From Leclercia adecarboxylata (GTDB lineage Bacteria; Pseudomonadota; Gammaproteobacteria; Enterobacterales; Enterobacteriaceae), in NCBI GenBank assembly GCA_002360945.1, contig DERO01000007.1:175501-239500 (forward strand): a DNA stretch of 64,000 nucleotides, written 5' to 3'. Shown piece after piece: positions 31,953 to 57,789 of this stretch. The notes beneath the pieces were generated by a model. That model was not told the DNA's origin. It worked only from the letters and a program-made list of their open reading frames with translations, and did no database searches. The position numbers and the translations under genes were made by a program. Numbering within the stretch: the stretch's first letter is position 1; the number at the start of each line of letters is the position of its first letter.

Positions 31953-32497
31953 CAGTCATCCTTCAACGGTTGTAACGTCAGGTAGTCATTCCCGGCTTCC
32001 AGAATACGAGGTTTATCCGGATCGAGCTCTTCCCGTTTGAGAACCTGCCTCCAGGTGTTATTGACCATATCCGGATGGCGGAACAGTCCAACCACCGCAA
32101 CAAACTGCGCACCTTCTTCCATGGGCATATCAAGATTCGCATCCCCGCCCGGTTTTACCACCACGTCGCGGGTCCCCAGCAGGTCGGCCTTCAGGATGGT
32201 GTCATCGTCTTTCAACAACTGTTGGTAGACCGTTTTGTCGAAGGTTTTACGGTCTTTCAGCTGGTAGACACGGACTACTAGCGGCTCAGACAGAGAGTTA
32301 CTTTCGCGGGAATCGGTGTTCAGCGCTTCGCGTGCAGTGAAATCCAGGTGCAGGACCTTTATCTTTTTATAAAACACGGCGTTAAAGGCCGATTTGGTAC
32401 CATCTGTGATGCCCTGTGTCACCCCGCAACCCGCCAGGCTGAAAGCCAGCAGGGGTAACAGCCAGCGTGCAGTTTTAGTTAAACTTGTACGTAACAC
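31952..32497 (-). CDS. tssJ: TssJ, outer-membrane T6SS lipoprotein
   Basis: 181 residues from a GTG at 32497, chosen because AAGGA is well spaced and the lipoprotein signal begins there (lipobox LAGC). Longer in-frame starts lie deep inside tssG. The transthyretin-like domain includes VVRVYQLKDRKTFDK, the family loop that contacts TssM. It overlaps the end of tssG by 23 bases. Confidence 0.92.
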   Translation of the reverse strand: MLRTSLTKTARWLLPLLAFSLAGCGVTQGITDGTKSAFNAVFYKKIKVLHLDFTAREALNTDSRESNSLSEPLVVRVYQLKDRKTFDKTVYQQLLKDDDTILKADLLGTRDVVVKPGGDANLDMPMEEGAQFVAVVGLFRHPDMVNNTWRQVLKREELDPDKPRILEAGNDYLTLQPLKDD

Positions 32498-33560
32498 GTC
32501 GGTTTCCTTGTTGTGGTATCGCAGGCGCCAGCCCGGTGTAGTAACCCAGTTCGGTGGTAAAGGTTTGCGGAATATCATCCGCAAGCTCATCACCTTCCGC
32601 CCCCAACACGCCATTCATCCCAAGCCATAAAGGGCCTTCGCCCAGCGGTGGCACGGCCAGCAGTCGGGTACTGATAGTCAGAGTGATTTTTGCCTTAAAG
32701 CGCCAGCCGAGATAGACCCGCAGCATCACCAGAAAGTCCTGATAAAGCAGACCATCCGGTTTCCAGCCCTGCGCCTCCTGTTCGTTATCGGTGGACAGCG
32801 CAATCAGCAACTGGCTGTTGGCATCCATCGCTTCGTCCCCTAGCGGCATGTTGCCGTCCAGCAGTAAATCATCATCGCCATAAAAGCCCAACGCCGGGCT
32901 GACTTCTACCGGCCGCAGGCAATACGGACTCACCTGCACCCTGGTATCGGTTGCCAGCAGGCTCACCAGTGCCTGCATACCCTCCTGAGTTTTTCCGGGC
33001 TGCTGCAGCACGCCAAGCAGCGACAGAAAGCGGGAAACCGGGGTGGCGATATGCTCTGCGGTGCCAGGTATGCCCAGCCCCACCAGACCCAACAGCGACT
33101 GCGAAATGCTGTCAGTCCCCCCGGCCTCAAACGTGGCCGGGTATGTGTATTTTCGCCAGATGCGATAATACTGCGTCAGGATGCGGTGGCCGAAAATATC
33201 CAGAAAGCCCTGCAGCGCCTCATGCCCTTCCCGGCGCTGGGAGATGTCATCGAGATAGGCGGTCGGCAGCGGCGAATCCACCCCGTACATTCCCATAAAG
33301 GTGGTGCGGATCATCGGTGGCTTGCTGTCATCACCCTCGTCATATTCGACTGCTTTAAGCTCACTCGCCGGGAAACCCATCCCCGGATGTGGTGCAAAGC
33401 GTACCGGATCATCCGCGGGATGGCTGGTTGAGCCCATCAGCGGCCTGCGAGGATTTCGCTTCTCCAGCAGCTGGCATAACCGGTAAAAGTTGATGCGGTG
33501 AAGGTCGGCTTCCAGCCGCGGAGTCAGCCGGGAATGCGGCGGTTGTGTTTTTCTTCCCAT
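32475..33560 (-). CDS. tssG: TssG, baseplate protein
   Basis: 361 residues. The N-terminal motif INFYRLCQLLE and the central FGHRILTQYYRIWRKY are hallmarks of TssG. It connects TssF2 to TssE and TssK in the wedge. It overlaps tssF by 37 bases and tssJ by 23. Confidence 0.95.
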   Translation of the reverse strand: MGRKTQPPHSRLTPRLEADLHRINFYRLCQLLEKRNPRRPLMGSTSHPADDPVRFAPHPGMGFPASELKAVEYDEGDDSKPPMIRTTFMGMYGVDSPLPTAYLDDISQRREGHEALQGFLDIFGHRILTQYYRIWRKYTYPATFEAGGTDSISQSLLGLVGLGIPGTAEHIATPVSRFLSLLGVLQQPGKTQEGMQALVSLLATDTRVQVSPYCLRPVEVSPALGFYGDDDLLLDGNMPLGDEAMDANSQLLIALSTDNEQEAQGWKPDGLLYQDFLVMLRVYLGWRFKAKITLTISTRLLAVPPLGEGPLWLGMNGVLGAEGDELADDIPQTFTTELGYYTGLAPAIPQQGNRRVTYKFN

Positions 33561-35278
33561 TCCAGGCGCTCTCCGGTCGGTTGCAGAATGATAATCAGGC
33601 GGTTGAAAAGATAGATGTCGGTATAGAGCGCAAAGAAGCGGCTCAGCATCTCGCCAAACAGGCAGATGTCGCCGCGCCCGGCAAAGCCGTGAACGTCCAG
33701 CGTGACGTCAATCTGTACGCCACGGACCAGATAGCCCTGCTCGAAGCGCTCCGTTTCACTGTGTTTCACGTCGAGGATCGCTTCCAGACGACGGCGATTC
33801 ATCTCGCTGTCTGTCCATTCATACAACGCCAGAGTGCCGCGCAGCACGTCGGCATTATCCATCATCGACAGAAACCCGCTGCCGAGGTGGCTGAGCACGC
33901 GCCAGTGGAAACGATCCCGCGCTGGTGGATAACAGGGCAGCGTCGGCGCACACAGGTTACGCACGGCGATACTGGCCGAGGTGGTTTTCATCACCGTATC
34001 AAGCACGGTGCTCTGCAGCGCACGTCGTGGCAATTGGCCATTGGTGCCGGTCAGCGTCAGCGAGAGGCTTTCATCCTCCGGCACGGTGTGATTATCAAAG
34101 GCTTCGCCACCGAGAATAAGCCAGGTGTTATGCAGCCCGGACGGACCACGGCGTACGCGGGTGTGGTAGTAATATTCCGGGGCTTCATGGCGCATCATTC
34201 CGCCTTTGTGGCGGAAACTCGAGAACGGCACGTAGGTATGCTGGCTCGATGATATTACCGAATCCACGGTATATATCTCGGTATGGCCATCCTGCACGCG
34301 CATCGGACGCAGGATGTATTCTGTCTGCAGGGAGTCGAGCGTCAGCGGATCGGATTCCAGCGGGAAAAGGTTTATCACCGGCACGCAGTTGAGACGCAGA
34401 TGTTTCTCGGTAAAGCTGAAGTCATGTTCCCAGCGCTCAGCCAGTACCACATCGATTTCAAACCATGACAGCTCAGCAGGGAATTCCACCGTCTCGAGTC
34501 CCAGCAAACCGGTGAACATGAATTTCTCGCGGAAGGTGAAGTACTCCAGCAGCAACTGATAACCGCTAAAGCTGCTGCTGCCTCTCGGCCACAGGTTGTC
34601 GTCATCGCCAAACCCCAGCGCGGTGAAATACCCGTCTAGTGGTCTTCTGTCCATGTCACCCGGCATCCGCAGCCAGAGGCGGGCAGTGTTCATGGTAAAG
34701 GCCTCATGCATGGCGCAGGCCAGCGGTGCGTCTGCGTTGAAGTAAAACGGGATCAGGCTGAGATCGACACGGCTCCAGTCGGCAAGATGGCTGCAGTTGA
34801 AGCGCAGACTGATGACCGAACGCCCGTCAGGATCAGTCGACAGGCGGGCGTACTCCAGCGACAGCGGCTGAAGGGTAATCTCTTTAGTGGTGGTGTACCG
34901 GCAGCGCGTACACTTCTCACCAATCGGCCGGGAATTCACCTCAAAGCCTTTGACGATGTGCATCTGCTCTTTCATCTCGCGCCAGTCAGGGGTAAATTCC
35001 ACCACCGACATTGACGGAATGGTGCGCAGGTAATGCGGCCATAGCAGGCTGACCAGCCCTTCGGTCAGTTCCGGCAGGTCGTCATCAAGCTTCTCACGCA
35101 GGCGGCCCATCAGGAAGGCAAAGCCCTCGAACAGGCGCTCTACATACGGATCGCGCGCGCCCGCTTTATCGAGATTGAGCATTGCCGCCTGCTCGGGGTG
35201 AGCACGGGCAAATTCTTCGCCGGCTTCCATTAGGTAGCGCATTTCAGCGTCGTAATAACGCAGGGTTAAGTCGTCCAT
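33524..35278 (-). CDS. tssF: TssF, baseplate protein
   Basis: 584 residues from ATG 35278. The upstream open frame (27 codons) is rejected because TssF proteins start with this YYDAEMRYLMEAGEEFARAHP block. Other typical parts are DPYVERLFEGFAFL and the RGVQIDVTLDVHGFAGRGDI C-terminal region. The Shine-Dalgarno site is weak, so expression may depend on read-through from genes upstream. Confidence 0.95.
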   Translation of the reverse strand: MDDLTLRYYDAEMRYLMEAGEEFARAHPEQAAMLNLDKAGARDPYVERLFEGFAFLMGRLREKLDDDLPELTEGLVSLLWPHYLRTIPSMSVVEFTPDWREMKEQMHIVKGFEVNSRPIGEKCTRCRYTTTKEITLQPLSLEYARLSTDPDGRSVISLRFNCSHLADWSRVDLSLIPFYFNADAPLACAMHEAFTMNTARLWLRMPGDMDRRPLDGYFTALGFGDDDNLWPRGSSSFSGYQLLLEYFTFREKFMFTGLLGLETVEFPAELSWFEIDVVLAERWEHDFSFTEKHLRLNCVPVINLFPLESDPLTLDSLQTEYILRPMRVQDGHTEIYTVDSVISSSQHTYVPFSSFRHKGGMMRHEAPEYYYHTRVRRGPSGLHNTWLILGGEAFDNHTVPEDESLSLTLTGTNGQLPRRALQSTVLDTVMKTTSASIAVRNLCAPTLPCYPPARDRFHWRVLSHLGSGFLSMMDNADVLRGTLALYEWTDSEMNRRRLEAILDVKHSETERFEQGYLVRGVQIDVTLDVHGFAGRGDICLFGEMLSRFFALYTDIYLFNRLIIILQPTGERLEWEEKHNRRIPG

Positions 35279-35362
35279 AATAACCAATATGATTGAGTGT
35301 TTTATAATGTTCAGGTATAAAGCGAAACCATGACAGCCTGCAACTCGTTGAGATCGCACCGA

Positions 35363-35614
35363 CTAATCTTTCTTGTTTAATCGCTTAAAAACCAGAAGAA
35401 AGACGACACAAATAACAACAAAAGTAATATTCGATGCACCATAGAATAACCAGACCATAGAGTAGATTTTGTCAACCAAATAATCCAGATGCGTTCCAGT
35501 TAACGCGGGTTCATACGTGTATTTGATATCCACAAATGAAAGGGAAAGAACCGCTGTACTGGCCAGTAAAAATAAGGATACAGGTGCACAAGCAAGCAAC
35601 AGACGCTTAATCAT
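35363..35614 (-). CDS. Small two-span membrane protein, 83 aa, unknown
   Basis: ATG at 35614 with AGGTAG upstream. Two hydrophobic segments (about residues 3-25 and 52-76) flank a short periplasmic loop (DIKYTYEPALTGTHLDYLVD). AT-rich compared with tssF. It lies in the effector/immunity islet between the PAAR effector's immunity gene and tssF, so an immunity or accessory role is possible but not shown. Confidence 0.7.
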   Translation of the reverse strand: MIKRLLLACAPVSLFLLASTAVLSLSFVDIKYTYEPALTGTHLDYLVDKIYSMVWLFYGASNITFVVICVVFLLVFKRLNKKD

Positions 35615-35738
35615 TCTCAACTACCTAGGGTTTCCTTTCAGGATTACCTGTATTTCAGCGCTATATTTTCGGGATTTCAAACGTAATTCACACAAGTTGT
35701 TATTTCCTTATCTCTTTGTTAATTAATAATTTTTATTT

Positions 35739-36176
35739 TTATGGTGATATATTTATTTTATTAAAACATAGAACATTCCTCAGTGGTGTAATAGTTTCCC
35801 TCTCTAGTCCAATGTACACATTGTATGAACAGTAACCAACATCTGTGTTAATATCAAAAATCGCCCCCCCGCTCACATTAGTTAATGAATCCTTCTGGTT
35901 TTTGGTCTTCCACCCAAGGTATAACTGGCCATTATTTAAATCAAGCTCCTGCCAGGATAGAATGATTTTCTCATGCTCATCGTTATTTATCACAATGGGC
36001 CTCATGGAACTATCAGCCTGTTCAATATCAGGTTCAACGTTTTTCACACCTGTACCTTTGTATAGATAAATAACACCACCCGACTTATTATATATATTTA
36101 AAGAAGGCTTAAGGCAATTCGCAAATACAACAAAAAAACACAACCCAAAGAAAATGACAACAGTATTTTTTATCAT
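35739..36176 (-). CDS. Probable immunity protein of the PAAR effector, 145 aa
   Basis: The N-terminal hydrophobic segment (MIKNTVVIFFGLCFFVVFA) is followed by NCLKPS. The residue before the Cys is Asn, so this is a poor lipobox; a cleaved or uncleaved signal anchor is more likely. The rest is a beta-rich periplasmic domain. Its ATG overlaps the stop of the PAAR effector by four bases (ATGA), the coupling typical of effector-immunity pairs. AT-rich. Unknown family; the role is inferred from position, and the export signal implies that the toxin is neutralised in the periplasm. Confidence 0.7.
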   Translation of the reverse strand: MIKNTVVIFFGLCFFVVFANCLKPSLNIYNKSGGVIYLYKGTGVKNVEPDIEQADSSMRPIVINNDEHEKIILSWQELDLNNGQLYLGWKTKNQKDSLTNVSGGAIFDINTDVGYCSYNVYIGLERETITPLRNVLCFNKINISP

Positions 36177-37261
36177 TGAAACTCCGCAGGTATATTAATT
36201 CGCTCAGAATTCTTCCCATTCCAGCACCAATGGTCGGTTCTGGATTCTGAAAAACCTTTCGTTGATGTATTTACAAGCGCATCAAGAATATGCTGAGAAG
36301 TAAGCTTTTCGGCATATTTACCAAAGCGATGGTATAACTCAAAACCAATCTTCATGCTTGTAACATCATCCAGAGTATCATCACCCATAGCACCCGGGGT
36401 CATATTTTGTTCCCAGGTAGAACCTTTCAATAATAGCTCTTCAGAAAACCCAACACTTAGCCCCACATATCCATAATGGATATTTGACCAGACATCCAAG
36501 TAAAAATCATACTCTTTATATTTATGATAGTAGCTTTCTGACATTTGTTTTGATTCCAAAGGCCGAGTTACCGCAACTGATTTAAATTTTTTCCTTATTA
36601 TTGGTTTATGGTCCCAGGTAGAGCCCGTTTTTACGGTCTGATACCAGACAGCCATTGCAGCAGGCAAATCCGGTTTTGGATATGGAGCCAACTTTGCATA
36701 AAAAGGGAGTTTATTCCACTCGACAAGCCTTTGGTTTAAAGTATCCTCGTCGATTAAATATCTGATTGTGTCTGCAGTCTGACTTCTGACGTTCGTCTTA
36801 ATTTCTTTGAGTATATAGTCAGCAACTTTTATCGCGCCATCAGTATGCTGACAATGCAGCTTACTCTTAAGATCTGACGATTGCCCGTTAGACGTTACTG
36901 ATGGAGTAGTTGTCGGTGAAGTTGCTGTAGATGTAGATGTGGCTGCCGTTGTTCCCCCTGCAGAATTAGCACTCCCTCCACTCTTCTCGTACGTATCATC
37001 CATCATTGACGGAATTAACTTCGCCTTACACGGACAGGTGCTGTAGCTGTCGAGAGTCCCGGCCATTCGTCTGCCGTGTATGGTATCGTTATCGATGCCA
37101 CCGGCTACCTTGTAAAGCCCTACAAATTGACCGCAGGTCACGCCGTCCTGTTCCCGGGCAACAGGTTTACCAAACAGAGTGTGATCTTCTGCGCCCGTGA
37201 TAATTCTCCCGCCGCAGGTCGTTTTGTCGCCCTGCACCAGATAAAAGCCTTTTGCTGGCAT
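36173..37261 (-). CDS. PAAR-tipped T6SS effector with C-terminal toxin domain
   Basis: 362 residues from ATG 37261 (AAGGA upstream; the longer frame runs into tssA). Residues 1-92 are a PAAR domain (GDKTTCGG, CPCKAKLIP) that caps the VgrG spike. Residues 94-127 are a Ser/Thr/Gly linker. Residues 128-362 are a separate domain with WDHK (216-219), DVWSNIHYGYVG (256-267) and DHWCW near the end. The NIHYGYVG block recalls the polymorphic toxin type 44 family (Ntox44), a match from memory. Coupled to a downstream gene encoding an exported protein, its likely immunity partner. Confidence 0.85.
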   Translation of the reverse strand: MPAKGFYLVQGDKTTCGGRIITGAEDHTLFGKPVAREQDGVTCGQFVGLYKVAGGIDNDTIHGRRMAGTLDSYSTCPCKAKLIPSMMDDTYEKSGGSANSAGGTTAATSTSTATSPTTTPSVTSNGQSSDLKSKLHCQHTDGAIKVADYILKEIKTNVRSQTADTIRYLIDEDTLNQRLVEWNKLPFYAKLAPYPKPDLPAAMAVWYQTVKTGSTWDHKPIIRKKFKSVAVTRPLESKQMSESYYHKYKEYDFYLDVWSNIHYGYVGLSVGFSEELLLKGSTWEQNMTPGAMGDDTLDDVTSMKIGFELYHRFGKYAEKLTSQHILDALVNTSTKGFSESRTDHWCWNGKNSERINIPAEFQ

Positions 37262-37293
37262 ACGTTTTTCCTTTTCGCTGAATTCAGTCCTGG

Positions 37294-38895
37294 TTACCCG
37301 CAAAGTACTGCACTGCCTGCCGGGTCAAGTGCAATCAGACCGGCCAGAAGTTGGTCCATCTCTGGCTGAAGCCATGCCTTATCGGTTTCACTGCGTGCGG
37401 CTTTCATGCGCAGCAGCCTGAGGCGTCGCGATTTCACTTCAAACAATAGCGCCGGCGTCCACTGCGTGAGGGTGATGGACTGTGCTGCGCCGTCAAGTTC
37501 ACCCAGCAGGTGCAGGGCCAGTTCATTTTTACCCTTCTGCTCCGCCACACGGGCCATTAACAAACGCAGCAACCATTTATCTTTTGTGGTGTCGGTGCCC
37601 GGGCGTGTCTGCAGCCAGTGAAGTGTGACATCCAGACCGTCAGTGTCCGCTTTCTCCAGCGCCTCTGGTTCAAGGGCCAGGATATCGTTGTCAGTCGTAC
37701 TGGAGACACTGACCGGCTTATCCCGCCAGCCGGTCATATCGTCCAGCACGCTCTGGTTTATCCAGTTCAGCGTAACCTCATCGGCAAACGGCGTACCGTC
37801 ATTAAAGGCCAGGGTTTCAAGCCCGGTGAGGCGGCGCAGCAGTCCTTTCAGGTCGGCGGTGATGATGTCAGCCAGCACATTCTGCCCCGACTTCATCAGG
37901 GCCTGATGGATATACCATTGCAAATCCAGCCAGAGGTGATTGGCGCCACGTGAGAAGGTGCTGTCCGCCTGCTCCAGTATCTCCAGCCAGCTCTGCTGTA
38001 AATACAGGCGTTTGAGCATAGCCCGCTGGTCAGCCCGCGGCGGTTCGATACGCGTTTTCCCTTCGGCATCCGGAGCCGGGATAGCACTCAGCGTGTCATG
38101 ACGCAGACTTTTCATCAGCCGATGCGCCGCAAGCCAGCCATCGGGTTGCTCACGAAGATACTCCGTCAGGGTTCGGGCCTGGGCCAGTAAATCCTGACCG
38201 GACGTGATGCGGCTCAGGACCGGTGCGTCATGCTCTGTCGTGAATGATGAACTTTGTGACTGAGCCTTGTTACCGATGTTCTGCGGTACAACCGCATCCA
38301 CACCACCGGCCTTTATCAGGCGGGAGACCAGCGCGCTGTAAAGGGCATTCAACTCCGGCCTTGACGCCTCCAGCTCTGTCCCTAGACTGTCGCGGATAAG
38401 CAGCAGCGCACCAACAGTGCGCAGGGCATCGTCACGGACCACTTCCGGCCAGAGTGACAGACTGTCGAGAACACGGGAGCCTGCGAGCCACTCCAGCGCC
38501 GGTTTACGGCTTCGCTCACGCTGCGGATGAAGCTGTGTTCCATAGCGCTGCAGCAATCCCGCCATTAGTTCAAGCCCTTCAGCAAAACCGGTTTCGCCGT
38601 CCTGATGCAGGCGCGCCCAGCAGTAGTAAGTGGCAACCCGGATATCTTTGGCCGCAGTGGTCAGCACCTTTTCAGCCAGCTGGCAAATCAGACCTGTATC
38701 GATGCCGGAAAGTTTATTAACTTCCTCGCGGATGCGCTGGAAGTCATCGTCATATCCCGGGTCTTCACCCGTCGGACGGGTATCGCTGACCGGGGCAAGC
38801 CAGGGCTGCCAGCTTTCCGTGCGTGACTGCGCCTGCTGTCGCAGCAGGGTTTCATCTGTCTGACAGGCGGAGACCAGATTCTGCAGAGTGCCCAT
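37294..38895 (-). CDS. tssA: TssA, T6SS cap/assembly protein
   Basis: 533 residues. The N-terminal ImpA_N domain (about 40-160; GEDPGYDDDFQRIREEVNKL) is followed by a middle domain and a C-terminal VgrG-independent helical domain (LEILEQADSTFSRGANHLWLDLQWY, LLRLLMARVAEQKGKNELALHLL). TssA coordinates baseplate and sheath growth. Its ATG shares one base with the tssM stop (TAATG). Confidence 0.93.
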   Translation of the reverse strand: MGTLQNLVSACQTDETLLRQQAQSRTESWQPWLAPVSDTRPTGEDPGYDDDFQRIREEVNKLSGIDTGLICQLAEKVLTTAAKDIRVATYYCWARLHQDGETGFAEGLELMAGLLQRYGTQLHPQRERSRKPALEWLAGSRVLDSLSLWPEVVRDDALRTVGALLLIRDSLGTELEASRPELNALYSALVSRLIKAGGVDAVVPQNIGNKAQSQSSSFTTEHDAPVLSRITSGQDLLAQARTLTEYLREQPDGWLAAHRLMKSLRHDTLSAIPAPDAEGKTRIEPPRADQRAMLKRLYLQQSWLEILEQADSTFSRGANHLWLDLQWYIHQALMKSGQNVLADIITADLKGLLRRLTGLETLAFNDGTPFADEVTLNWINQSVLDDMTGWRDKPVSVSSTTDNDILALEPEALEKADTDGLDVTLHWLQTRPGTDTTKDKWLLRLLMARVAEQKGKNELALHLLGELDGAAQSITLTQWTPALLFEVKSRRLRLLRMKAARSETDKAWLQPEMDQLLAGLIALDPAGSAVLCG

Positions 38896-41800
38896 TATTC
38901 CATCCCGTTCGTGTCATTGTTTCCGTTATCTGCCATCAGTGCCTGCGCAGTAGCGGCGCTGTCGACGCTGAATATCTGGTCCGGCAACGTGAACCCGCGA
39001 AGTGCCAGTAACGCCAGCGGACCGCTGCCAAGCTGTGAGCGCAGCACCCACTGCAGGGTACGACCATCAGGAGCAGTGAAGTTCATCATCCACTGGCTGC
39101 GGTCAAGCTGCTGGCGTTTGCCCTGATCCAGCCAGCGAATGAAGCCCCAGGTTCCGCTGTAATCCCCGAACAGGCGCGCCCCGGCGTTGACCGTAGTCCA
39201 GGTCAGCATTGTCCCCGGCCTGTACGTCTCTCCCGGCCAGCGGAAGCTCTGCCAGTCGGCCATCTGGTTGAAGTAATGCAGCTTTTGTCCATCGATGGTC
39301 AGCTGGGTTTCTACTACCTGCGGTACAGGGCGTGCCTGCAGCTCAAAGCTGATGCCCTGGCTTCCATCGGTAAACAGAATGTCTGACAGCTGGCTCAACT
39401 GGTTAACCGCCCGCAGGAAGGCCGGGTTAAAGCTCAGCCCCTGGCTGTTGACCTTATCCGGTATCCACTGGCTGCCCTCTTTGTGCAGCACGCCGCTGAG
39501 CTCTGTGGTCAGGAAGCGCTCTATACGCCCGCTGTCCTTGCGCACAAACTCCGCCAGCATCGGCAGGGAAGCATCACTTTTGCTGACCGCAAACGGGAAA
39601 CGTCCGTCAAAGGCAGTTTGCCAGTTCGCGACAACCGAGCGGCTCCATTTATCATTCAGGCTGGCTGCCGACGGCTGAAGCACGGTCTCCCAGGCCTGGG
39701 TCAGCGGCTGGACAAACATCGTGCTGCCAAAACCGCTCCACTCCTCACCGAGGCTTGCCGAAATCAGGCTGCCGTACTGCCGGGTGTCGATGAGGTCCAC
39801 GCTTTTGCCCTGGAACACGGTCTGCGCCAGGGTCTGCATCATCGCCTGCGGGTCTGAGGCGCTGGCCACCTGTTGAAGTCGCAGACGCACCCGGGTGATA
39901 CGGGTCAGCCAGGTCTGCAGGCTCAGTGAGTTATCCGCCGACATGACGTTGCTGCCTTTGTTCTTACCAAGCAGCTGAAGCAGCGGGCCGAAAGTTTCAT
40001 CCAGCGGCCCCTGCGGCCCTGACGCAGACTGGTCAATCGCAGGTTTATCTTTTCCGCCCACGAGATCTTTAGCCGATTTGATGATGGAGTCCGAAAGACC
40101 TTCGCTTTGCTGGCCGGTCTGTCCCTGCCAGGCGAGGGTATTCATCAGGGCAATCAGCGGCGACTGTCGCACATCACTCATTAGCGTAAGCTGGTCGGTG
40201 ACGTCAGCGATGGTGTTCGCCGGATTAAGTTGCAGGCTGTTGAGGAAACTCAGCCAGCTGCCGGCAAAGTCGGTGAAGTAACGTTGTGTCAGACGGGCTT
40301 TCAGCGCTTCCGGCGACAGGTCAGCTGATATCGATTTATGGGAATCACTTAATACCCAGTCGATTTCGTCCCGGCGGGAATTTGCTGCTTTCTCGATGGC
40401 CTGCTGAATCCCCCCTTCCCAGGCCTGGCGGGTGAACATGCCCGGTACCACCTCTTCGGTGGTGAACAGTCGCCGCGCGTCGGTACTGCTGGTCATATCT
40501 TCCAGAGAAACATCGGCAAAGTTACGACGCACGGATTTGAGCATGTTCTCATACAGGGTGGTTTCAGCATTACGTCGTCCAATTTGCTGTAACAGCACCT
40601 GACGGCTATGGCTGACCAGCTGTGTGTCCGGCGTGATTTTCCACCGTGGCTGTTCTGGCAGTCCGGAGATGTAGAAGGCCCACAAATCCGGGGACAGACT
40701 TTGCCATAGGCCGGTGGAAATGCCCGTTCGCGTCGGCTGAACGGCTTTCAGGGTCTGTGCATAGAATGCGCCGTCGGCTTTATCCGGACGGGCCATCATC
40801 AGCCAGGCTTTCAGCTGGTCATAGCCCGGTTTCGCCAGCTGTGCCCGCTGGTCGCTGTTAGGCGCAGAGTTTGCCAACGCGCTGAGCTTCTGCTTAAGCA
40901 CCTCATTTGCCGGGTCGCGTATCAGGCGATTGTTCGCCACGCCGTACCAGGGCAGCATCGCGTCGAGCAACTGCCGGTTATGGTCCAGACCGAAGCGTTG
41001 ATACCATGGCGCACCATTCTGAATACGGTCCCGCAGGCGGCCGGCATCATTACGCAGAGTATGCAGGGCCGTCAGCAGCTCATCCGATACGGAAGGATGT
41101 TCCACCAGAGCATGAGCCTGCTGTGCAACAGAGACTATCTGTGACCGGTTAACCGCAAACGACAGCAGCGTCCCTGCCCCCCAGACACCAATGATGGCCA
41201 TCAGCGTCCAGGCGAGCGTCTGCTCCCACGCCATACCGACACGGCGGCCACGCACGCGGGTACAATCATCAACAATACCCTGCCAGGTCACCGGCAGGGT
41301 CAGCGCATGGCGTTGTGACCCCGGGACATATTTCTCAGCATCGGCTGTCCCGTCTGACGAATGCGTGGGTTTATTCTCCGGCAGGCTGAACATCAGGCCC
41401 CGCAGCGGAACGCGCTGCTGGGAGGTATAGAGCCATGGCACCAGCTGCTGAGCCCGGCGGGCGATACCACCCTCTTTCAGGTGCTGGCCCAGGCGCAGCA
41501 GGAAGTCGTGGCGGTTGTCCTCAGCGATCTGACTCATTCCCTGCGACCGCAGGGCCGGCAGCATCAGCTCCAGCTGGCGGATAACATCGTTTTCATTTGC
41601 GCGCAGGGGAAAGCTTGCGCCTACCGCCTGCTCAGGACGCGTGTCCTGCGACCAGTGACTACTGCACAGCTGCCACAGCCAGACCGGGGCGGAATAACGC
41701 AGCAGTTCGCTGATTTTTTCCAGGCCGCGTAAATCATTGTCGCTGATTTGTGTGGTCAGCTTAAGCGACTCAGGCAGCACACGGATAATCCCGTCCAGCG

Positions 41801-42368
41801 GGCGTACGCGGCGCAGTTTGCGCAGCGCGGTGTATTTTTCGCGGTCAGGCTCTGATGTCAGGCTGCCGCCGTAAATCAGCACGGTGCGGTTGCCTTCAAG
41901 CCACTGCTGCTGTTGCAGGCCGGGAACCAGTTGTTCGATTGCCGCCTCATCGCCAGTGATTAACAGCAGACGGGTTTTGCTGCGCCAGTAAAGACTAATA
42001 CGGGAACGGAGATGCGTCCGAATCCTGTCACACATAGCCACCGCAGGGTGAACAGGGGCTCTATCATTTTCCCGCTTCTTTTTGTCATCATCACCACTGG
42101 TATCGTCGACAAGCGCATTAAACTCCTTTTTACCGGCACTGAGAGCAGCCCACAGGTGCACAACCAGCATGATAAATGTGCATCCGGAAATGCAGCCTCC
42201 GCCAATCAGCCAGTAAATTTGCTGCTTATTACCGTCTACCATTCCGGCCATTTCCGGATACTTCCAGACAATAAACGTCATTGCTACAAAGAGTAAAAAG
42301 AGAATGAATGCGACAAAAAGATAGCGGCCTTCCGTAGTCTTCGGTGCAAAAGCAAAAGGTAGCTTCAC
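38895..42368 (-). CDS. tssM: TssM, inner-membrane IcmF-type protein
   Basis: 1157 residues from a GTG at 42368, chosen for AGGAG at seven bases and the GTGA overlap with the upstream gene. Two N-terminal membrane segments (about 18-40 and 48-72), a cytoplasmic domain, a third segment (about residues 398-420, LAWTLMAIIGVWGAGTLLSFAV) and a ~730-residue periplasmic part that binds TssJ. The cytoplasmic domain has no Walker A (GxxxxGKS/T): where it should be, the sequence reads RLLLITGDEAAIEQL. With TssL and TssJ it forms the trans-envelope complex. Confidence 0.93.
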   Translation of the reverse strand: MKLPFAFAPKTTEGRYLFVAFILFLLFVAMTFIVWKYPEMAGMVDGNKQQIYWLIGGGCISGCTFIMLVVHLWAALSAGKKEFNALVDDTSGDDDKKKRENDRAPVHPAVAMCDRIRTHLRSRISLYWRSKTRLLLITGDEAAIEQLVPGLQQQQWLEGNRTVLIYGGSLTSEPDREKYTALRKLRRVRPLDGIIRVLPESLKLTTQISDNDLRGLEKISELLRYSAPVWLWQLCSSHWSQDTRPEQAVGASFPLRANENDVIRQLELMLPALRSQGMSQIAEDNRHDFLLRLGQHLKEGGIARRAQQLVPWLYTSQQRVPLRGLMFSLPENKPTHSSDGTADAEKYVPGSQRHALTLPVTWQGIVDDCTRVRGRRVGMAWEQTLAWTLMAIIGVWGAGTLLSFAVNRSQIVSVAQQAHALVEHPSVSDELLTALHTLRNDAGRLRDRIQNGAPWYQRFGLDHNRQLLDAMLPWYGVANNRLIRDPANEVLKQKLSALANSAPNSDQRAQLAKPGYDQLKAWLMMARPDKADGAFYAQTLKAVQPTRTGISTGLWQSLSPDLWAFYISGLPEQPRWKITPDTQLVSHSRQVLLQQIGRRNAETTLYENMLKSVRRNFADVSLEDMTSSTDARRLFTTEEVVPGMFTRQAWEGGIQQAIEKAANSRRDEIDWVLSDSHKSISADLSPEALKARLTQRYFTDFAGSWLSFLNSLQLNPANTIADVTDQLTLMSDVRQSPLIALMNTLAWQGQTGQQSEGLSDSIIKSAKDLVGGKDKPAIDQSASGPQGPLDETFGPLLQLLGKNKGSNVMSADNSLSLQTWLTRITRVRLRLQQVASASDPQAMMQTLAQTVFQGKSVDLIDTRQYGSLISASLGEEWSGFGSTMFVQPLTQAWETVLQPSAASLNDKWSRSVVANWQTAFDGRFPFAVSKSDASLPMLAEFVRKDSGRIERFLTTELSGVLHKEGSQWIPDKVNSQGLSFNPAFLRAVNQLSQLSDILFTDGSQGISFELQARPVPQVVETQLTIDGQKLHYFNQMADWQSFRWPGETYRPGTMLTWTTVNAGARLFGDYSGTWGFIRWLDQGKRQQLDRSQWMMNFTAPDGRTLQWVLRSQLGSGPLALLALRGFTLPDQIFSVDSAATAQALMADNGNNDTNGME

Positions 42369-43573
42369 GTATCCATCTCCTGTCGGGAAGCAATCGGGGT
42401 AATGAGCGTGCTCCACAGCACATTCTTTGTGGTATCGCCACAGATAACCATCTGTGGTAACTGTGTTTGTCGGGAGATTTCAGTGGCGGCAGCGATGGCC
42501 AGCCAGGGGGCTGCGGCTGCGGCACGTCCCATAGACATATCGAGTGAAATGACGGAGTCGTCCGCTACAGACTGCGCAGGATGTGCATTCTGACACGCGA
42601 TAACTTCTGCGTGCTGCTCACCCGTTAGTCCGGCAAGCCATAAATTTTTAACGATATTTCCTTTGAGCGGGACGTTATAGGCGGCCATGTTCATCCCCTC
42701 GCTCAGTTCACCTGGAGGGGAAGCATCTGGCCGGTGCAGCAGCGCGAGAGGTTCGAGTGCCTCCTGTGTCAGGCGGTTGCCCAGAAGCAGTGCAACAGCG
42801 GCTTCTGCAGTATTGCTTGATGCAACCGGATCAATCTGGATACCAACTATCAATAACATCACTTCATCTTTAATGCGGTGATCAAGCCAGTGGCTGACCA
42901 CTCCCGGCCCATTGCTGTCCAAATACTCAACAGCGCAGGTTAATCCACTTTCCTGCCAGGCTTCCTGCCAAATCTCCCGAACCGCAGCGAATGACAAAGA
43001 TGACGAGATATCAAGAATGACTGCCAGTGAGGCATTTTCCGGGAACTGACCAACTGGCAGATCAGCAATGAGTTCAGAAAACAGACGTGAGACAACCAGC
43101 CCAGGAGTCTCTCCTGGCTCTGTCGTAATACGGCTCAGTCTCTTGCCTTTTTCACCTTTCCAGTCCGACTGAGAAATGATAATGCTGTGGTTATTGAGTA
43201 TCTCAACAGCGACAGAACCCTGTTTGTCTTTCTGATGGGCAGTTATAAATGTCATATTCAGTATCTGAAGCGCGCGGCGTGCTTTACGGGTCTCACTTAA
43301 GATCCAATGTTCCCGGCGCCGATCAAAACTATTCGCTTTACTGTCATGTAATGACCAGGCCCACATGCGAAAACCGAAACTTACAATCCATACAACAACA
43401 GGCGTGCCAATAGCAAGTAACCAGAAGTGTCTGGTATCGATGTAGCGTCCGAATATACGCATGAGGATCACGCTAATAACCAACATTCCCGTCAGAACGA
43501 CAAACCAGCGGGATGTTTTTGGTGGAACTGGTCGTGGATAACATTCAGGAAGATGTTTAAGGGAATAGAACAT
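42365..43573 (-). CDS. T6SS-linked membrane protein of unknown function, 402 aa
   Basis: Two membrane segments near residues 23-42 and 50-70, then a ~330-residue soluble domain with no catalytic motif that I can name (LDISSSLSFAAVREIWQEAW; a late Ala-rich block AAAAAPWLAIAAATE). It is coupled to tssM by a GTGA overlap, so the two products are made together and may interact at the inner membrane. Similar genes sit next to tssM in related enterobacterial loci, to my recollection, without a tested role. Confidence 0.8.
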   Translation of the reverse strand: MFYSLKHLPECYPRPVPPKTSRWFVVLTGMLVISVILMRIFGRYIDTRHFWLLAIGTPVVVWIVSFGFRMWAWSLHDSKANSFDRRREHWILSETRKARRALQILNMTFITAHQKDKQGSVAVEILNNHSIIISQSDWKGEKGKRLSRITTEPGETPGLVVSRLFSELIADLPVGQFPENASLAVILDISSSLSFAAVREIWQEAWQESGLTCAVEYLDSNGPGVVSHWLDHRIKDEVMLLIVGIQIDPVASSNTAEAAVALLLGNRLTQEALEPLALLHRPDASPPGELSEGMNMAAYNVPLKGNIVKNLWLAGLTGEQHAEVIACQNAHPAQSVADDSVISLDMSMGRAAAAAPWLAIAAATEISRQTQLPQMVICGDTTKNVLWSTLITPIASRQEMDT

Positions 43574-46276: not shown

Positions 46277-48709
46277 TCAGGAAAAAAGGAAATAACTGGC
46301 TGACTCTGTTGCTTCCGGACCAACACCCGGGACATCTTCATCTTTGTCTGGTTTTTCTTGCTGGTTGTCACCGGAGCGGGCAGGCTCTGCAGCTACCGGG
46401 GCAATACTCGGAAAATCTTCTGGTTTATTTGCCTTCTGCTGCCGGTCATAAAATCCCGCCCGTGTCCGGTAATCCCCGAGCGTCGCCGCCTCAATCGCAT
46501 TCGCGTCCAGTGTGATATAACTCCCGCCACCGTTCAGCGTGATCTTTTTCTTCGCAAGGATTTTGATTTCATCTTCCGTGCTGACGATGCTGATTTCTTT
46601 ACGTGCCAGCAGTTCCATTAGGTCGTTCTGTGCCTGTACCTGCACCGGCCCCTGGTTCGCAATGAGCTTGATCCCCAGCTTGCGCACAAACACGCTCAGG
46701 GCACTGCCCACCCCGATGAACAGATTTTTCACCACGCTGACGTCCGCATTTTTACCCGCCGTGGCAATCAGGTTCTGGCCGGCAGATACCTGCAGATGTT
46801 GGCCGCTGGTCAGCGCCATACCGTCCGGGGCGCTCATCAGCAGCACCGATTTTTTAAGGTCCGTCAGCTGCTGCTCCAGCAGTTTAATTTGCGCCTGAAG
46901 GTCGGCCGGGTTCGCGGTCGCCTTCTGCGCGTCACCGGAGAGGGATGTCATCTGCTCCCGGGCGGCACCCAGATTGCTGACCGCAGGCTGCATCTCCAGC
47001 ACCTGGCCCTGCGCCTGCGTCTGCCCGTCCGCCGAGATGAATATTCCTTTCTGCGCACGAATAGCGCCCCAGCTGTCGGTCCTGAGCTCAAAGCCTTCCC
47101 CGCGCTGTTGTTTCTCGCTGTCGACCAGGTGTCCGAGGTTGAGCTGGCTCTTGCCGCCGTACTCCGTGCTGACCTTGATATGCTCTTTTCCCCGCTCATC
47201 GTCGAGGCGGATTTTGTTGTTCGCCGGGGTGCGCAGGACGTTACGTTTGTAGTTGCGGATGGTGACGTGGTCGCCGTGGGCCGAGTCGTGCAGCACCCCG
47301 GAGATGTACGGCCGGTCCGGGTTACCGTCCTCAAAGCCAATCGCCACTTCGGTGCCCGTCAGCAGCGGCAGGTGCAGACCGTAAGTGTCCCCGGCATACG
47401 GCCGGGACTGGCGGACCCACAGGCTCTCGAACCCGGACTCCCAGCTGTCGCGGTCGAACAGCATGTTGACGCGGTAGCGGCCGTCTTTATCGATATGGCT
47501 GTAGGTATCATTTTCAGTGGTGCTGGTGACGCGGGCCGGTAATGTGCCGGCCATCACCGGCCGTGGTCCGGGCTCCGGGCGGAAACTGAAATCAGCGCTG
47601 TCCGGGATACCGTCAAACCTGATGCCGAAGTCCTCATCACGCCGGGCATGGCTGTGCATCGCCGTTATCACCACACCCTGAGCAAACACCTCCGCCACTT
47701 CGTATCCGCCGGTGACTTTCAGAATCTGCCCCGGAGACAGGGTCGGACAGCTGGTGATGGCCCGGGTCCGGGTCTGGCCATTCAGGTAGCGCTCATGGCG
47801 GATGCGGGCGTAAAACGCCCCGGACTCCGGGGCCGGATTGCGGTCATGGGAAGTTCCCGCCGTCAGATAGTTATCGCCGTAGTGGTAGGCCTCACCACAG
47901 GTGGTGGCATCCCCGCGGGTCACATCCACAAGGGTGTTCATGTCTGCGGTAGCCTGGCGGTAGTTGTAGTCGCGGGTGCTGACCTGCTTCTGCACCACAT
48001 TATGATGGCTCTCCATGCCCCACACAGAGTCCACACCCTTTGAGTGCTGCCCGGACGGCGGCACCGACGGCAACGTCAGGCCTTGTTCATACCCCTGCTG
48101 ACCGTCGTAAAACTCCACCACGTCAATGTTCAGGCGCGTGTCTGTGGTAAAGCGGAACCAGATACCCACCTCACCCAGAAGACGGGTGATGAAGTGCAGG
48201 TCGTCCTCACCGTACTGCATCACCTGCTCACGGCGTGGATATTCTTTACTGAGCGAGAAGAGGAAATCCTGTCCTCTGAAGCTGTGACGCTCACGCAGGA
48301 TTTTTTCCACAATCTGCGGGACCGACATATCCTGGTAGATGGCGTTCTGGTGCGAGCGGTCAAGCAGCGCCAGGCGTGGCCGGAGCGTCAGGGCATAACG
48401 GGTTTCATCTTCTGAGGTGCTGAGACGTTCAAAGCCGGTCACCACACCCTGAATCACCCGCACCGGCAGCTGCAGCTTAATGCCGAAGCCCTGGTCCACC
48501 GGGGCCTGCAGCGTCAGGGAGGCCGCTTTCATCAGCATCATCTCTTTGCTGATGGCATGGTCACCACTGGTGAACTCAATCCGGTAGCTGAACGGCGTGC
48601 TCAGGGCTTCATCGCCCTCAAACGCCAGCACATCGAGCTCTGCTTCACATCCCTTCACCGAAAGCAGGTGATGGCTGTGGCTGAATCTTAGCGGCAGGCT
48701 GATGCTCAT
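46277..48709 (-). CDS. vgrG: VgrG spike protein
   Basis: 810 residues. The gp27-like N-terminal region (1-~380) and the gp5/OB region (ARVTSTTENDTYSHIDKDGRYRV-type, with WVRQSRPYAGDTYGLHLPLLTGTEV) are followed by a DUF2345 beta-helix region (SAGQNLIATAGKNADVSV). The Pro/Glu-rich tail (about 760-810) ends YFLFS and probably carries the downstream effector. Its ATG overlaps the clpV stop by four bases (ATGA). Confidence 0.95.
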   Translation of the reverse strand: MSISLPLRFSHSHHLLSVKGCEAELDVLAFEGDEALSTPFSYRIEFTSGDHAISKEMMLMKAASLTLQAPVDQGFGIKLQLPVRVIQGVVTGFERLSTSEDETRYALTLRPRLALLDRSHQNAIYQDMSVPQIVEKILRERHSFRGQDFLFSLSKEYPRREQVMQYGEDDLHFITRLLGEVGIWFRFTTDTRLNIDVVEFYDGQQGYEQGLTLPSVPPSGQHSKGVDSVWGMESHHNVVQKQVSTRDYNYRQATADMNTLVDVTRGDATTCGEAYHYGDNYLTAGTSHDRNPAPESGAFYARIRHERYLNGQTRTRAITSCPTLSPGQILKVTGGYEVAEVFAQGVVITAMHSHARRDEDFGIRFDGIPDSADFSFRPEPGPRPVMAGTLPARVTSTTENDTYSHIDKDGRYRVNMLFDRDSWESGFESLWVRQSRPYAGDTYGLHLPLLTGTEVAIGFEDGNPDRPYISGVLHDSAHGDHVTIRNYKRNVLRTPANNKIRLDDERGKEHIKVSTEYGGKSQLNLGHLVDSEKQQRGEGFELRTDSWGAIRAQKGIFISADGQTQAQGQVLEMQPAVSNLGAAREQMTSLSGDAQKATANPADLQAQIKLLEQQLTDLKKSVLLMSAPDGMALTSGQHLQVSAGQNLIATAGKNADVSVVKNLFIGVGSALSVFVRKLGIKLIANQGPVQVQAQNDLMELLARKEISIVSTEDEIKILAKKKITLNGGGSYITLDANAIEAATLGDYRTRAGFYDRQQKANKPEDFPSIAPVAAEPARSGDNQQEKPDKDEDVPGVGPEATESASYFLFS

Positions 48710-51348
48710 GCGTACACTCCACGATCAAACTCCAGTACGATACCCTCTCCTTCATCCCAGCCCAGCATCAGACTCTGCGGCTTCTGCCCTGCAGCCATAT
48801 AGCCCAGCAACTGCTGGCTCAGCACAGGCAGAATCTGCTGATTCAGCAGACTGTCGACGTTACGCGCACCGGTATCCGGCAACAGACAGGCATCGGTCAA
48901 CGCGTCATACAGACTTTCGCCGATCTCCGTCTTCATACCGTAGTGGCGAGCCAGTCGTTTGCTCACCTGGTTCAGTTTCATCCCGACAATGGTGCGCATC
49001 GCGGCTTGGGCCAATGGTCGATAAATCACCGTCTGGAAACGCGCCAGCAGCGCAGGCTGGAAGTGGTCCCGCAGGACCGGGCGCAGCAGCTCATGCAGGT
49101 CTGCTTCTGTGGCTTCCGGCTGCTCTTCCAGCAACTGCATGATGAGGTCACTGCCGAGGTTCGACGTCATCAGGATAACGGTGTTGCGGAAGTCGATTTC
49201 ACGCCCTTCGCCGTCGCGCATAAAGCCCCGATCAAAGACCTGATAGAACAAGTTCATTACGTCCCGGTGCGCCTTTTCCACTTCATCCAGCAGCACCACG
49301 CTGTACGGGCGTTTGCGAACCGCTTCGGTGAGAATGCCGCCCTGACCGTAGCCGACGTAGCCTGGAGGTGAGCCCTTTAGCTGGGAAACGGTGTGCGGCT
49401 CCTGGTACTCGGAGAGGTTGATGGTGATAAGGGATTTTTCGCCGCCAAAGAGTTCATCGGCCAGTGCCAGCGCGGTTTCGGTTTTACCGGTACCGCTCGG
49501 GCCGGTGAGCAGGAATACGCCCTGCGGACCGTTTTCCGGGGCAAGGCCGGTTTTTGAGGCGCGCAGACGTTGCGCGATGGCATTAAGGGCCGTGTCCTGA
49601 CCCACTACCCGTTTCCCGAGGCTTTCTTCCAGATTCAGCAGCTCCGTCTGCTCATCCTTCATTAATGAAGAGAGCGGCACCCCGGTCCAGTCGGCGATCA
49701 CAGTGGCGACGGTGCCTGCATCCACGTCCAGGCCCAGCAACGGGTTACCCTGCTGAACGGTGGTAAGCTGGCTCTGCAGGGCAGCGATTTCTGCCTGACG
49801 GGAGATGTCCGTACGACAGGCCATTAGTTCTCCGGTGAGTTTCAGCTCCTGGCCGTACTGCGTTTCCAGGATATCAAGCTCGAGGATAATGCGGATTTCT
49901 TCCTGCTCGATGATTGTCAGACGTTCGTTGCTAGTGCAATTGCCAAGGGCAATATCTTCCAGCAGCGCCTGCTTCTCCATATCCAGCGCAGTGAGCTGCG
50001 CCTTCATGCGGGTCAGCTGTTCAGGCACGGTATCGAGGCTCATGCGGATGCGGGCCGAGGCAGTGTCCAGCAGATCCACCGCCTTGTCCGGCAACTGGCG
50101 ACCTGTCAGGTAGCGTCTGGACAGCGTGACGGCGGCTTTAACGGCCTCATCGGTGATCTATACACCGTGGTGTTCTGCGTATCGCGATTTCAGACCTCGC
50201 AGCATCAGACAGGCGGTGTCGTCGTCCGGCTCGTCTACTTTCACCATCTGGAAGCGACGCTCGAGGGCGGCATCACGCTCAAAGTATTGTTTGTACTCGC
50301 TCCAGGTGGTGGCCGCGATGGTCCGGAGCTCGCCGCGGGCCAGCGCGGGCTTCAGCAGGTTGGCTGCATCCGCTCCGCCCGCCTGATTGCCCGCCCCGAT
50401 AATGGTGTGGGCCTCGTCGATAAACAGCAGGACCGGTGAAGGAGACTGCTGCACTGCTTCAATGATGTTTTTCAGCCGCTGCTCAAATTCACCTTTAACA
50501 CCCGCTCCTGCCTGCAACAGACCAAGATCCAGGGTGCGTACACTCACTGGCTTAAGGCTGTCCGGTACGTTACCTTCAGCAATACGCAGCGCCAGTCCTT
50601 CCACCAGCGCAGTTTTACCAACACCAGGCTCACCGACCAGAATGGGGTTGTTTTTGCGGCGACGGGAGAGAATATCCACCATCTTACGGATTTCATTGTC
50701 GCGACCAAACACCGGATCGATTTTGCCATCGCGGGCGCGAGCGGTGACGTCGAGGGTAAACTTATCCAGCGCGTTCTGCAGTGCCGGAGTCAGCTCGCCT
50801 TCTTTGATATCGGCATTGACCGGACGGCCTACAAACTCCACCTCTCCGCCGTGCGCCAGTTCCGCTTCCTGCTGTGCTTCCGGGCGCTCATCAGACTGCG
50901 CATCCAGCAACGGGCGCAGGCGCTCAAGCTGGCTTTGTCCCAGAGTCAGCAGCGGCCATAAACCGTCGCAGCGCACCTGTTTCGGTTTTTCCACCAGCGC
51001 CATCAGCAGGTGAACGCTGCGGATCTGTTCTTCACCCGCCAGCGAGGCACGCAGCCATGCGTCCTGCATCAGAACCTGAATGCTGTCCGAGAGCTGCGGG
51101 CGACTACGAACAGAGCGTGGAAGCGTATCCATATGTGCCAGTAAATCCTGCCATATCGCGTCCATATCCCACTCATAACGACGGGCCAGAACCGTCAGAT
51201 CGCCCTCGCCTTGCTCCAGCAGCTTAAGCAGCCAGTGCTCGGGCAGGATTTCCGCGTGAGCCCGGGTCTGGCATAGTGAGGCGGCGCCTTCCATGGCGCG
51301 GGCACAGTAGGGATTTAGACGGCGTAACAGGACGGCTGGATTTTCCAT
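48706..51348 (-). pseudogene. clpV: ClpV (TssH) AAA+ ATPase, interrupted by an in-frame amber codon
   Basis: The whole frame is 880 codons, normal for ClpV, which disassembles contracted sheaths. Codon 397 (50158-50160) is TAG, in GV-stop-ITDEAVKAA, where relatives have a Leu. The frame is otherwise intact on both sides. The N-piece (396 aa) has the N-domain and first Walker A (GEPGVGKTAL) and Walker B (LLFIDEAHT). The C-piece has the middle domain and the second ATPase (GPSGTGKTETAL, VVLLDEVEKAH). A TTG at 50094 could restart translation but has no convincing site. Truncation, rare read-through or a sequencing error are all possible. Confidence 0.9.
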
Positions 51349-51479: not shown

Positions 51480-51507
51480 CAAAAAAAGCAGACGGATAAC
51501 CGTCTGC
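51480..51507 (-). terminator. Strong terminator after hcp
   Basis: GCAGACGG / CCGTCTGC with a TTAT loop, followed by seven U residues on the minus strand. It begins eight bases after the hcp stop, within the 167-base gap before clpV, so expression of clpV and the genes beyond depends on read-through or a second promoter. Confidence 0.88.
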
Positions 51508-51515
51508 TCAGGAAA

Positions 51516-52007
51516 TCAGGCAGTGGCGCGTTCATTCCAGGAATCGGAATGAATGATGTTGCCGTCCTTATAGGTCCAGGTGATTTTTTCGTAGCGCAGC
51601 TCAATCTGTTCCAGATGGTTGTGCTTCTCTTTGGATGGATCCTTGATGTCATGCATCAGCGGATTGACCTTCACCACCTTCACGTTCTCAAGCTTGGTAT
51701 TGAAGTACTCCACTTCCTGACCGGCATCGTTGATTTTGTACCACTTAAATTCCGCAGATTTCAGGGTCTGGCCGGTAGTGACCGCCTTGTACAGGTATGG
51801 GCTGGAGGAGTCGATTTCCTTGGTGAACAGGAACGGCGTGTGAATACGCGTGCCGGTCAGCTTGCCGGTGTTGTTATCGGTTGGGATGTACAGGTTATGT
51901 TCCTGAGCAACCACTTCGATGCTGCCTTCACGGTCCTTCACGTCCACGGAACCTTTGATGTCCGCACCGCCGTCGTCCTTCAACCACAGATAAACGGGTA
52001 TTGCCAT
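51516..52007 (-). CDS. hcp: Hcp (TssD), T6SS inner-tube protein
   Basis: 163 residues of the Hcp1 family (MAIPVYLWLKDDGGADIKGS start, LENVKVVKVNPLMHDIKDP, ELRYEKITWTYKDGNIIHSD end). It forms stacked hexameric rings that carry effectors and is found in the medium as the usual marker of activity. GGAG is well placed before the ATG. Confidence 0.97.
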   Translation of the reverse strand: MAIPVYLWLKDDGGADIKGSVDVKDREGSIEVVAQEHNLYIPTDNNTGKLTGTRIHTPFLFTKEIDSSSPYLYKAVTTGQTLKSAEFKWYKINDAGQEVEYFNTKLENVKVVKVNPLMHDIKDPSKEKHNHLEQIELRYEKITWTYKDGNIIHSDSWNERATA

Positions 52008-57297: not shown

Positions 57298-57789
57298 TTA
57301 TTTCGGGGCAAGCGCACTCATTTCGTCGCGTAATTCCTGAGACAGCGCCGGATCTTTAAGAATTTTCTCGAGTTCTTTTCTGAAAGTGGCGTTATCAAGA
57401 AGATTGGATTTCAGATCGCGTAATAAATTACGCATTGCCAGCATGGCGCGAAGTTGAGGAATTTGACGGGCAACCTGTTCGGGTTCGAAATCTTTCATGC
57501 TGGAAAATTGCAATCGGATATTTTCTTCTGAGCCCTCGCCGACCAACATATTTTGTACAGCCAGGTTAATTTCCGGGTTAAATTCTGAAAGTACACTATC
57601 GAAGTTATTTTTATTGACGTTAACCTTCTCCCGCTCTGATAACGGCCGGTTTTCTTTGCCATTACTGAAGTCACCAACGGTAAGGAGCTTAAGCGGCAAT
57701 TCAACTTTCTTTTGTGCGCCCCCCGTATGGAGAGCTAATTTGAGATTTATACGTGCCTTAGGCACTTCATTCTGAAATGTATCAGCCAT
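57298..57789 (-). CDS. tssB: TssB, sheath small subunit
   Basis: 163 residues of the VipA family (KVELPLKLLTVGDFSNGKENRPLSERE, NMLVGEGSEENIRLQF). The helix near the C-terminus (DLKSNLLDNATFRKELEKIL) is the region that ClpV recognises in partners. It is first in the locus, so the main promoter should lie in 57790-58097. Confidence 0.96.
   Translation of the reverse strand: MADTFQNEVPKARINLKLALHTGGAQKKVELPLKLLTVGDFSNGKENRPLSEREKVNVNKNNFDSVLSEFNPEINLAVQNMLVGEGSEENIRLQFSSMKDFEPEQVARQIPQLRAMLAMRNLLRDLKSNLLDNATFRKELEKILKDPALSQELRDEMSALAPK

What the first reader, a model, noticed from the sequence alone, without database searches (positions are those of the whole stretch)
50158..50160. In-frame amber codon splits the T6SS ATPase ClpV
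The clpV frame is open over 880 codons except for one TAG at codon 397, in the block GV-stop-ITDEAV where relatives carry a Leu (a TTG to TAG change would suffice). Both ATPase halves are intact, so the event looks recent or tolerated. ClpV recycles sheaths, and loss usually lowers but does not abolish firing. Because vgrG is ATGA-coupled to the clpV stop, the nonsense codon could also reduce vgrG. Amber read-through, a suppressor tRNA, a two-piece ClpV or a sequencing error are the alternatives.
Basis: seen in the sequence. Interest (0 to 1): 0.72.

Follow-up and report, generated by a model that had tools for sequence, protein, structure and literature searches.

The report
Stop codon breaks T6SS motor gene
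One stop codon interrupts the gene for the motor that recycles a bacterial injection machine, and it looks like an ordinary recent loss in a machine that related bacteria often lose.

Summary
In detail: on the minus strand, TAG at 50160-50158 is codon 397 of an otherwise open 880-codon clpV/tssH. The break falls inside the D1 small (lid) domain, not at a domain joint. No CUA-anticodon tRNA was found in the draft genome, though the tRNA survey is incomplete. The other twelve core tss genes of the cluster are present and open. Of 44 copies of this clpV type listed in 61 genomes of the genus, only the window's has a stop in its body; one (G017) lacks its 5' end. A single-contig genome marked 'same species' keeps both flanks but holds only a decayed remnant without clpV. 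The locus fits T6SS-2 (T6SS-Eb2) of Enterobacter, reported incomplete in 39.5% of cases. The genome also carries another T6SS with an intact, divergent ClpV. Best reading: a young, ordinary loss-of-function mutation. Base error, read-through and a two-piece ClpV are not excluded but less likely. Interest is low.

The parts
50158..50160 (-). in-frame TAG, codon 397 of clpV/tssH
   Evidence: no other of the 44 copies has a stop in its body
50161..51348 (-). upstream clpV piece, 396 aa: Clp N-domain, NBD1 with Walker motifs, start of the D1 lid
   Evidence: Pfam Clp_N, AAA; PDB 4HH5 and ClpB matches; motifs
48706..50157 (-). downstream clpV piece, 483 codons plus TGA: rest of D1 lid, middle region, NBD2 with Walker motifs, D2-small
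   Evidence: Pfam AAA_lid_9 from model position 24, AAA_2, ClpB_D2-small
46277..48709 (-). vgrG, start overlapping the clpV stop (ATGA)
   Evidence: Pfam Phage_GPD, T6SS_Vgr, DUF2345
51516..52007 (-). hcp/tssD, 163 aa
   Evidence: 96-97% identical to the Hcp next to clpV in 7 relatives; annotated hcp under the matches; not scanned with a family library
51486..51509 (-). terminator-like hairpin plus T run between hcp and clpV
   Evidence: 8 such sites found in the region, 10.0 expected by chance, so the scan alone is no evidence; hairpin at the same place in 7 of 7 relatives, T run of 6 or more in 6 of 7
57298..57789 (-). tssB
   Evidence: TIGR03358
55720..57294 (-). tssC
   Evidence: TIGR03355
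52013..55706 (-). tssK, tssL and an OmpA-like gene
30211..43573 (-). 402-aa ORF, tssM, tssA, PAAR-Ntox44 gene, 145-aa ORF, tssF, tssG, tssJ, tssE, TssA-like gene (below its model cut-offs)

Best explanation
A recent, ordinary nonsense mutation has inactivated the sheath-recycling ATPase ClpV of a T6SS-2 (T6SS-Eb2)-type cluster. SHOWN: one TAG inside an otherwise intact gene in an otherwise complete cluster; no CUA tRNA found in the draft; another T6SS with its own intact ClpV; a heavily decayed copy of the same locus in a genome marked 'same species'. INFERRED: translation ends after 396 residues, within the D1 lid and without NBD2, so no working hexamer forms and contracted sheaths of this system are not recycled; the system would fire rarely or not at all. 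Because translation stops 1.4 kb before vgrG, vgrG and the closely packed genes behind it may also fall through lost coupling or Rho-dependent polarity. The other ClpV is unlikely to stand in, because ClpV N-domains are specific for their own TssC.
For: Single TAG, frame otherwise open. Twelve other core genes open. No CUA tRNA: 61 of 62 Rfam tRNA places called by ARAGORN, none CUA; a CUA-tRNA pattern gave 2 places, one tRNA-Arg(TCT), one not a tRNA, while the same pattern form caught 38 of 38 distinct known tRNA sequences. The stop lies inside the D1 lid. Stop in the body in 1 of 44 copies of the genus, so not a conserved feature. Remnant locus in G061 and 5' deletion in G017. Eb2 loci incomplete in 39.5% of cases (PMC13185608, section 5). 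ClpV1/ClpV2 not interchangeable in EAEC (PMC5048182, passages); here the N-domains are 27% identical.
Against: Neither piece shows relaxed selection: dN/dS to ten relatives is 0.044 upstream and 0.092 downstream, no higher than among the relatives (0.064, 0.111). A young loss explains this, but so would a product still made by read-through. 14 flank ORFs have the same length as in G061 and the rest of the cluster is clean, so general decay of this copy is not seen. Raw reads and protein were not available. The tRNA survey lacks some standard tRNAs.
Confidence: 0.87

Rival explanations
1. Sequencing or assembly error: the living strain has an intact clpV.
For: The change is a single codon in a 52-contig draft; the stop is unique among the 44 copies of the genus; both pieces remain under purifying selection.
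Against: Assembly is 99.96% complete with 0.02% contamination; the other 12 core genes are open and 14 flank ORFs keep the length they have in G061, so errors are not frequent here. That base errors are rare in short-read consensus is general knowledge, not tested.
Confidence: 0.08
2. Amber read-through or suppression makes enough full-length ClpV for a working, perhaps slowed, T6SS.
For: The downstream frame is intact and under purifying selection.
Against: No CUA tRNA found; the stop is not conserved in relatives. Read-through context was not measured.
Confidence: 0.03
3. A two-piece ClpV: a second polypeptide starts behind the stop and assembles with the first.
For: In-frame start codons follow; TTG 50094 and ATG 49824 have 4-base Shine-Dalgarno-like matches upstream.
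Against: The break lies inside the D1 lid, between ClpB residues 362 and 365; starting at TTG 50094 would lose 21 more residues. Short ClpV forms in the protein database end at many places; 19 of 120 listed end within 16 residues of the site, no more than in neighbouring stretches. Whether any of those has a downstream partner was not checked.
Confidence: 0.02

Closest known systems
clpV2/tssH of T6SS-2 (T6SS-Eb2), Enterobacter cloacae ATCC 13047 (PMC7541819, PMC13185608; passages, one section read)
   Same: The published 3' cloning primer for clpV2 fits the start of the window's vgrG with 1 mismatch in 20, and the 5' one fits the OmpA-like gene upstream with 3 in 19; Eb2 is the type often incomplete.
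   Different: The two 45-base clpV2 deletion arms do not match above background (17 and 19 mismatches). ATCC 13047 is said to lack the TssD of this locus; here hcp is present and clpV is broken.
ClpV1 of EAEC Sci-1 T6SS (PDB 4HH5, PMC5048182)
   Same: Best solved match of the N-domain, residues 1-158, E 3.5e-76.
   Different: Intact and active there; interrupted here.
T6SS decay by stops and deletions, Bacteroides fragilis GA3 (PMC9980007, passages)
   Same: Point mutations giving premature stops, partial and whole loss of T6SS loci.
   Different: Other phylum; parallel loss shown across many strains, here one stop, one deletion and one remnant in different genomes.

Membership tests
TssH/ClpV, T6SS sheath-recycling ATPase | ClpV-type N-domain followed by two AAA+ modules | tested here: met
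   met by the two pieces taken apart, not by one polypeptide
TssH/ClpV, T6SS sheath-recycling ATPase | one uninterrupted reading frame | tested here: not met
   TAG at codon 397
TssH/ClpV, T6SS sheath-recycling ATPase | located in a T6SS cluster with the other core genes | tested here: met
Enterobacter T6SS-2 / T6SS-Eb2 | match to published clpV2 locus | tested here: inconclusive
   2 of 4 clpV2 primers fit at the right places, 2 do not exceed background; clpV1 arms fit neither the window nor the C33 cluster. Gene order of Eb2 (a figure) was not seen.
programmed stop read-through (recoding) | conservation of the stop in relatives | tested here: not met
   1 of 44 copies
amber suppression | a tRNA with CUA anticodon in the genome | tested here: inconclusive
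   none found, but the draft survey lacks some standard tRNAs
nonsense pseudogene | loss of the full-length product | not testable with these tools
   needs protein data

The most novel reading that the evidence does not exclude
The amber codon is a tolerated dose control: low-level read-through supplies just enough ClpV for slow sheath recycling, turning this T6SS into a mostly single-shot weapon while the downstream half stays under selection.
Probability: 0.03. Interest if true: 0.6.

Novelty: new member of a known kind. Interest (0 to 1): 0.15.

Why it matters
It is one more data point on how secondary T6SS clusters are lost: a single stop in the recycling ATPase, with every other core gene still open, looks like an early step of a decay that is far advanced at the same locus in a genome of the same species. 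It also warns that clusters counted as complete by gene presence may not work.

Tried and rejected
Stops flagged by the genus search in G077 and G065 first looked like independent nonsense alleles; they are the normal gene ends at codon 878 and were dropped. The stop flagged in G017 sits at the edge of a 5' truncation that also removed hcp, not a nonsense codon. Four partial copies (two each in G083 and G080) were left out of the 44; two of them start at a contig end, the other two were not checked.

The protein search with the upstream piece (120 best of 7557 listed) showed no near-identical form, best 94%. 11 of the 120 lie on contigs over 3.9 Mb. Over all 120 the match to an intact ClpV ends anywhere between about 250 and 710; 19 end between residues 380 and 412, including P0027 (408 aa, 143 members, ends at 399, longest contig 3.7 kb), which is no excess over neighbouring stretches. 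These were not followed to their DNA. The set is clustered at 90%, so it cannot show whether other strains of this species are intact.

E. coli and plasmid searches gave 76-83% DNA homologues in the listed rows (20 each) and none covering 80% of the 8-kb query. Rho polarity and read-through context were not computed. No structure prediction was run. Paper searches for a clpV/tssH nonsense allele: (12 of 55 listed; 15 of 15 listed; 1 listed), plus 54 on loss of ClpV; listings read, five papers opened in passages (one section in full). Nothing I saw there describes this allele; that is not proof of absence from print.

Full report
OBSERVATION. On the minus strand the ORF from 51348 ends in TAG at 50160-50158 after 396 codons. 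The same frame continues open for 483 codons to TGA at 48708-48706; the only stops of the 881-codon frame are codons 397 and 881. The two pieces were scanned apart. The upstream one has Clp_N and AAA matches; the downstream one has AAA_lid_9 from model position 24, AAA_2 and ClpB_D2-small. Walker A and B motifs are present in both (motif patterns are recalled). Against an E. coli-type ClpB structure (6og3) the upstream match ends at residue 362 and the downstream one begins at 365, so the break is inside the small (lid) domain of NBD1.

THE GENOME. The window is in a 4.84-Mb, 52-contig draft, 99.96% complete and 0.02% contaminated. The cluster runs from tssB (57789) to a TssA-like gene (30211), all on the minus strand: tssB, C, K, L, an OmpA-like gene, hcp, clpV, vgrG, a 701-aa ORF, a 155-aa ORF, a 402-aa ORF, tssM, tssA, PAAR-Ntox44, a 145-aa ORF, tssF, G, J, E and the TssA-like gene (hcp by homology). 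Of the thirteen core genes only clpV is interrupted.

TYPE OF T6SS. The 3' cloning primer for clpV2 of E. cloacae ATCC 13047 (PMC7541819, passages) fits the start of the window's vgrG with 1 mismatch in 20 (0.01 expected by chance at up to 3 mismatches), and the 5' one fits the OmpA-like gene upstream with 3 in 19; the two 45-base deletion arms do not match above background, and the clpV1 arms fit neither the window nor the other cluster. The gene is therefore probably clpV2 of T6SS-2, called T6SS-Eb2 in a pan-genome study of 4,805 genomes that reports 39.5% of Eb2 cases incomplete against 0.07% of Eb1 (PMC13185608, section 5 read in full; other passages). In ATCC 13047 a clpV2 deletion lowered biofilm formation and adherence. 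The best solved match for the N-domain is 4HH5, ClpV1 of EAEC Sci-1.

RELATIVES. A search of 61 genomes of the genus, own included, with an intact relative's ClpV listed 44 copies at 80% identity or more (own included; 43 near full length, one 5'-truncated), in 40 genomes; lower-identity ClpV types and four partial copies were set aside. The tool flagged stops in 4 of 44: two are normal 3' ends at codon 878 (G077, G065), one is at the edge of a 5' truncation in G017 that also removed hcp, and one is the window's. So in this sample a stop in the body of this clpV is unique to the window. G061, a single-contig genome marked 'same species', had no ClpV match at the threshold. Its DNA is collinear with the window at 92.5% over 16691-31571 and 93.2% over 55903-64000, the ends being those of the DNA compared. 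Between lie about 5 kb with tssE, tssJ, parts of tssG, vgrG and tssK, and a tssC matching to residue 464 of 524; tssB and the TssA-like gene each match in two frames; neither clpV piece matches. The vgrG, tssJ, tssG and tssK fragments are only 36-54% identical to the window's proteins, so G061 probably decayed from another allele of the cluster and the two losses are most likely independent.

AGE. Nei-Gojobori dN/dS between the window's pieces and ten relatives averages 0.044 (upstream) and 0.092 (downstream); among the relatives, 45 pairs, 0.064 and 0.111. Neither piece shows relaxed selection, so a loss must be young compared with these divergences. dS is about 0.8 even to the nearest, so the bound is loose, and the result does not separate a young loss from read-through or a base error.

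SUPPRESSION. The tRNA family search gave 62 places, 150 of 152 candidates scored. ARAGORN on loci covering all 62 called a tRNA at 61, none with CUA; it called nothing at the lowest-scoring place, C1:13019. Trp, His and Glu tRNAs did not appear, so the list is incomplete. A pattern for a CUA tRNA found two places, a tRNA-Arg(TCT) and a stretch that ARAGORN does not call; the same pattern form with each tRNA's own anticodon caught 38 of 38 distinct tRNA sequences already found. A suppressor tRNA is unlikely but not excluded.

OTHER SYSTEM. Contig C33 holds another T6SS with an intact 894-aa ClpV (TIGR03345, 1221.9 bits, cut-off 884.95), tssB, tssC, tssJ, tssK, tssM, tagK, part of tssF at the end of the stretch taken, and an Hcp-like protein just under its model cut-off. 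Its ClpV is 43% and 46% identical to the two pieces, the N-domains 27%, TssC 40%. In EAEC two such ClpVs cannot replace each other, because each N-domain binds its own TssC helix (PMC5048182, passages); cross-rescue here is therefore unlikely (inference).

CONSEQUENCE. In V. cholerae a clpV deletion abolished Hcp secretion like other apparatus mutants but left clear killing of E. coli (PMC3166118, passages); in E. cloacae a clpV1 deletion resembled an hcp1 deletion in killing. So this T6SS may be silent or merely weak. vgrG overlaps the clpV stop and most genes behind it are closely spaced on the same strand, so lost coupling and polarity could lower more than ClpV. A hairpin follows hcp here and in 7 of 7 relatives, with a T run of 6 or more in 6 of 7, although the scan found no more such sites in the region than expected (8 against 10.0). 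If it acts, clpV is partly insulated from hcp and polarity would act from clpV onward. These steps are inferred.

VERDICT. It is most likely an ordinary inactivating allele in a T6SS type that is often lost, less likely a base error. Read-through and two-piece readings have no positive support beyond the intact downstream frame.

Noticed in passing
window 51486-51509 (-): Hairpin with T run directly behind hcp, at the same place in 7 of 7 relatives with differing stem sequences that still pair: a probable conserved terminator or attenuator that sets hcp apart from clpV-vgrG.
   Followed up: partly
window 52013-55706: tssK, tssL and the OmpA-like gene are only about 40-67% identical to those of 8 relatives although tssB, tssC (both sides 89-99%) flank them and, in 7 of the 8, hcp and clpV are 87-97%: a mosaic, probably by recombination.
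   Followed up: no
L198 1-7100 and L197 13589-15000 (G061): Decayed remnant of the same T6SS locus in a single-contig genome marked 'same species', with tssC running into a tssK fragment and tssB and the TssA-like gene frameshifted.
   Followed up: partly
L177 11585-15318 (G017): Deletion joining the OmpA-like gene to clpV from about residue 117, with hcp and the clpV start lost.
   Followed up: partly
L165 (G000:C33:37087-57086): Another T6SS cluster with intact ClpV and TagK; not assigned to a published Enterobacter type.
   Followed up: partly
window 36173-37303 (-): PAAR domain fused to a Bacterial toxin 44 domain, followed by a 145-aa ORF in the place of an immunity gene.
   Followed up: no
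window 43687-46262 (-): 701-aa ORF without Pfam match behind vgrG, then a 155-aa protein with a match just under cut-off to an NTF2-fold immunity family: candidate unknown effector and immunity pair.
   Followed up: no
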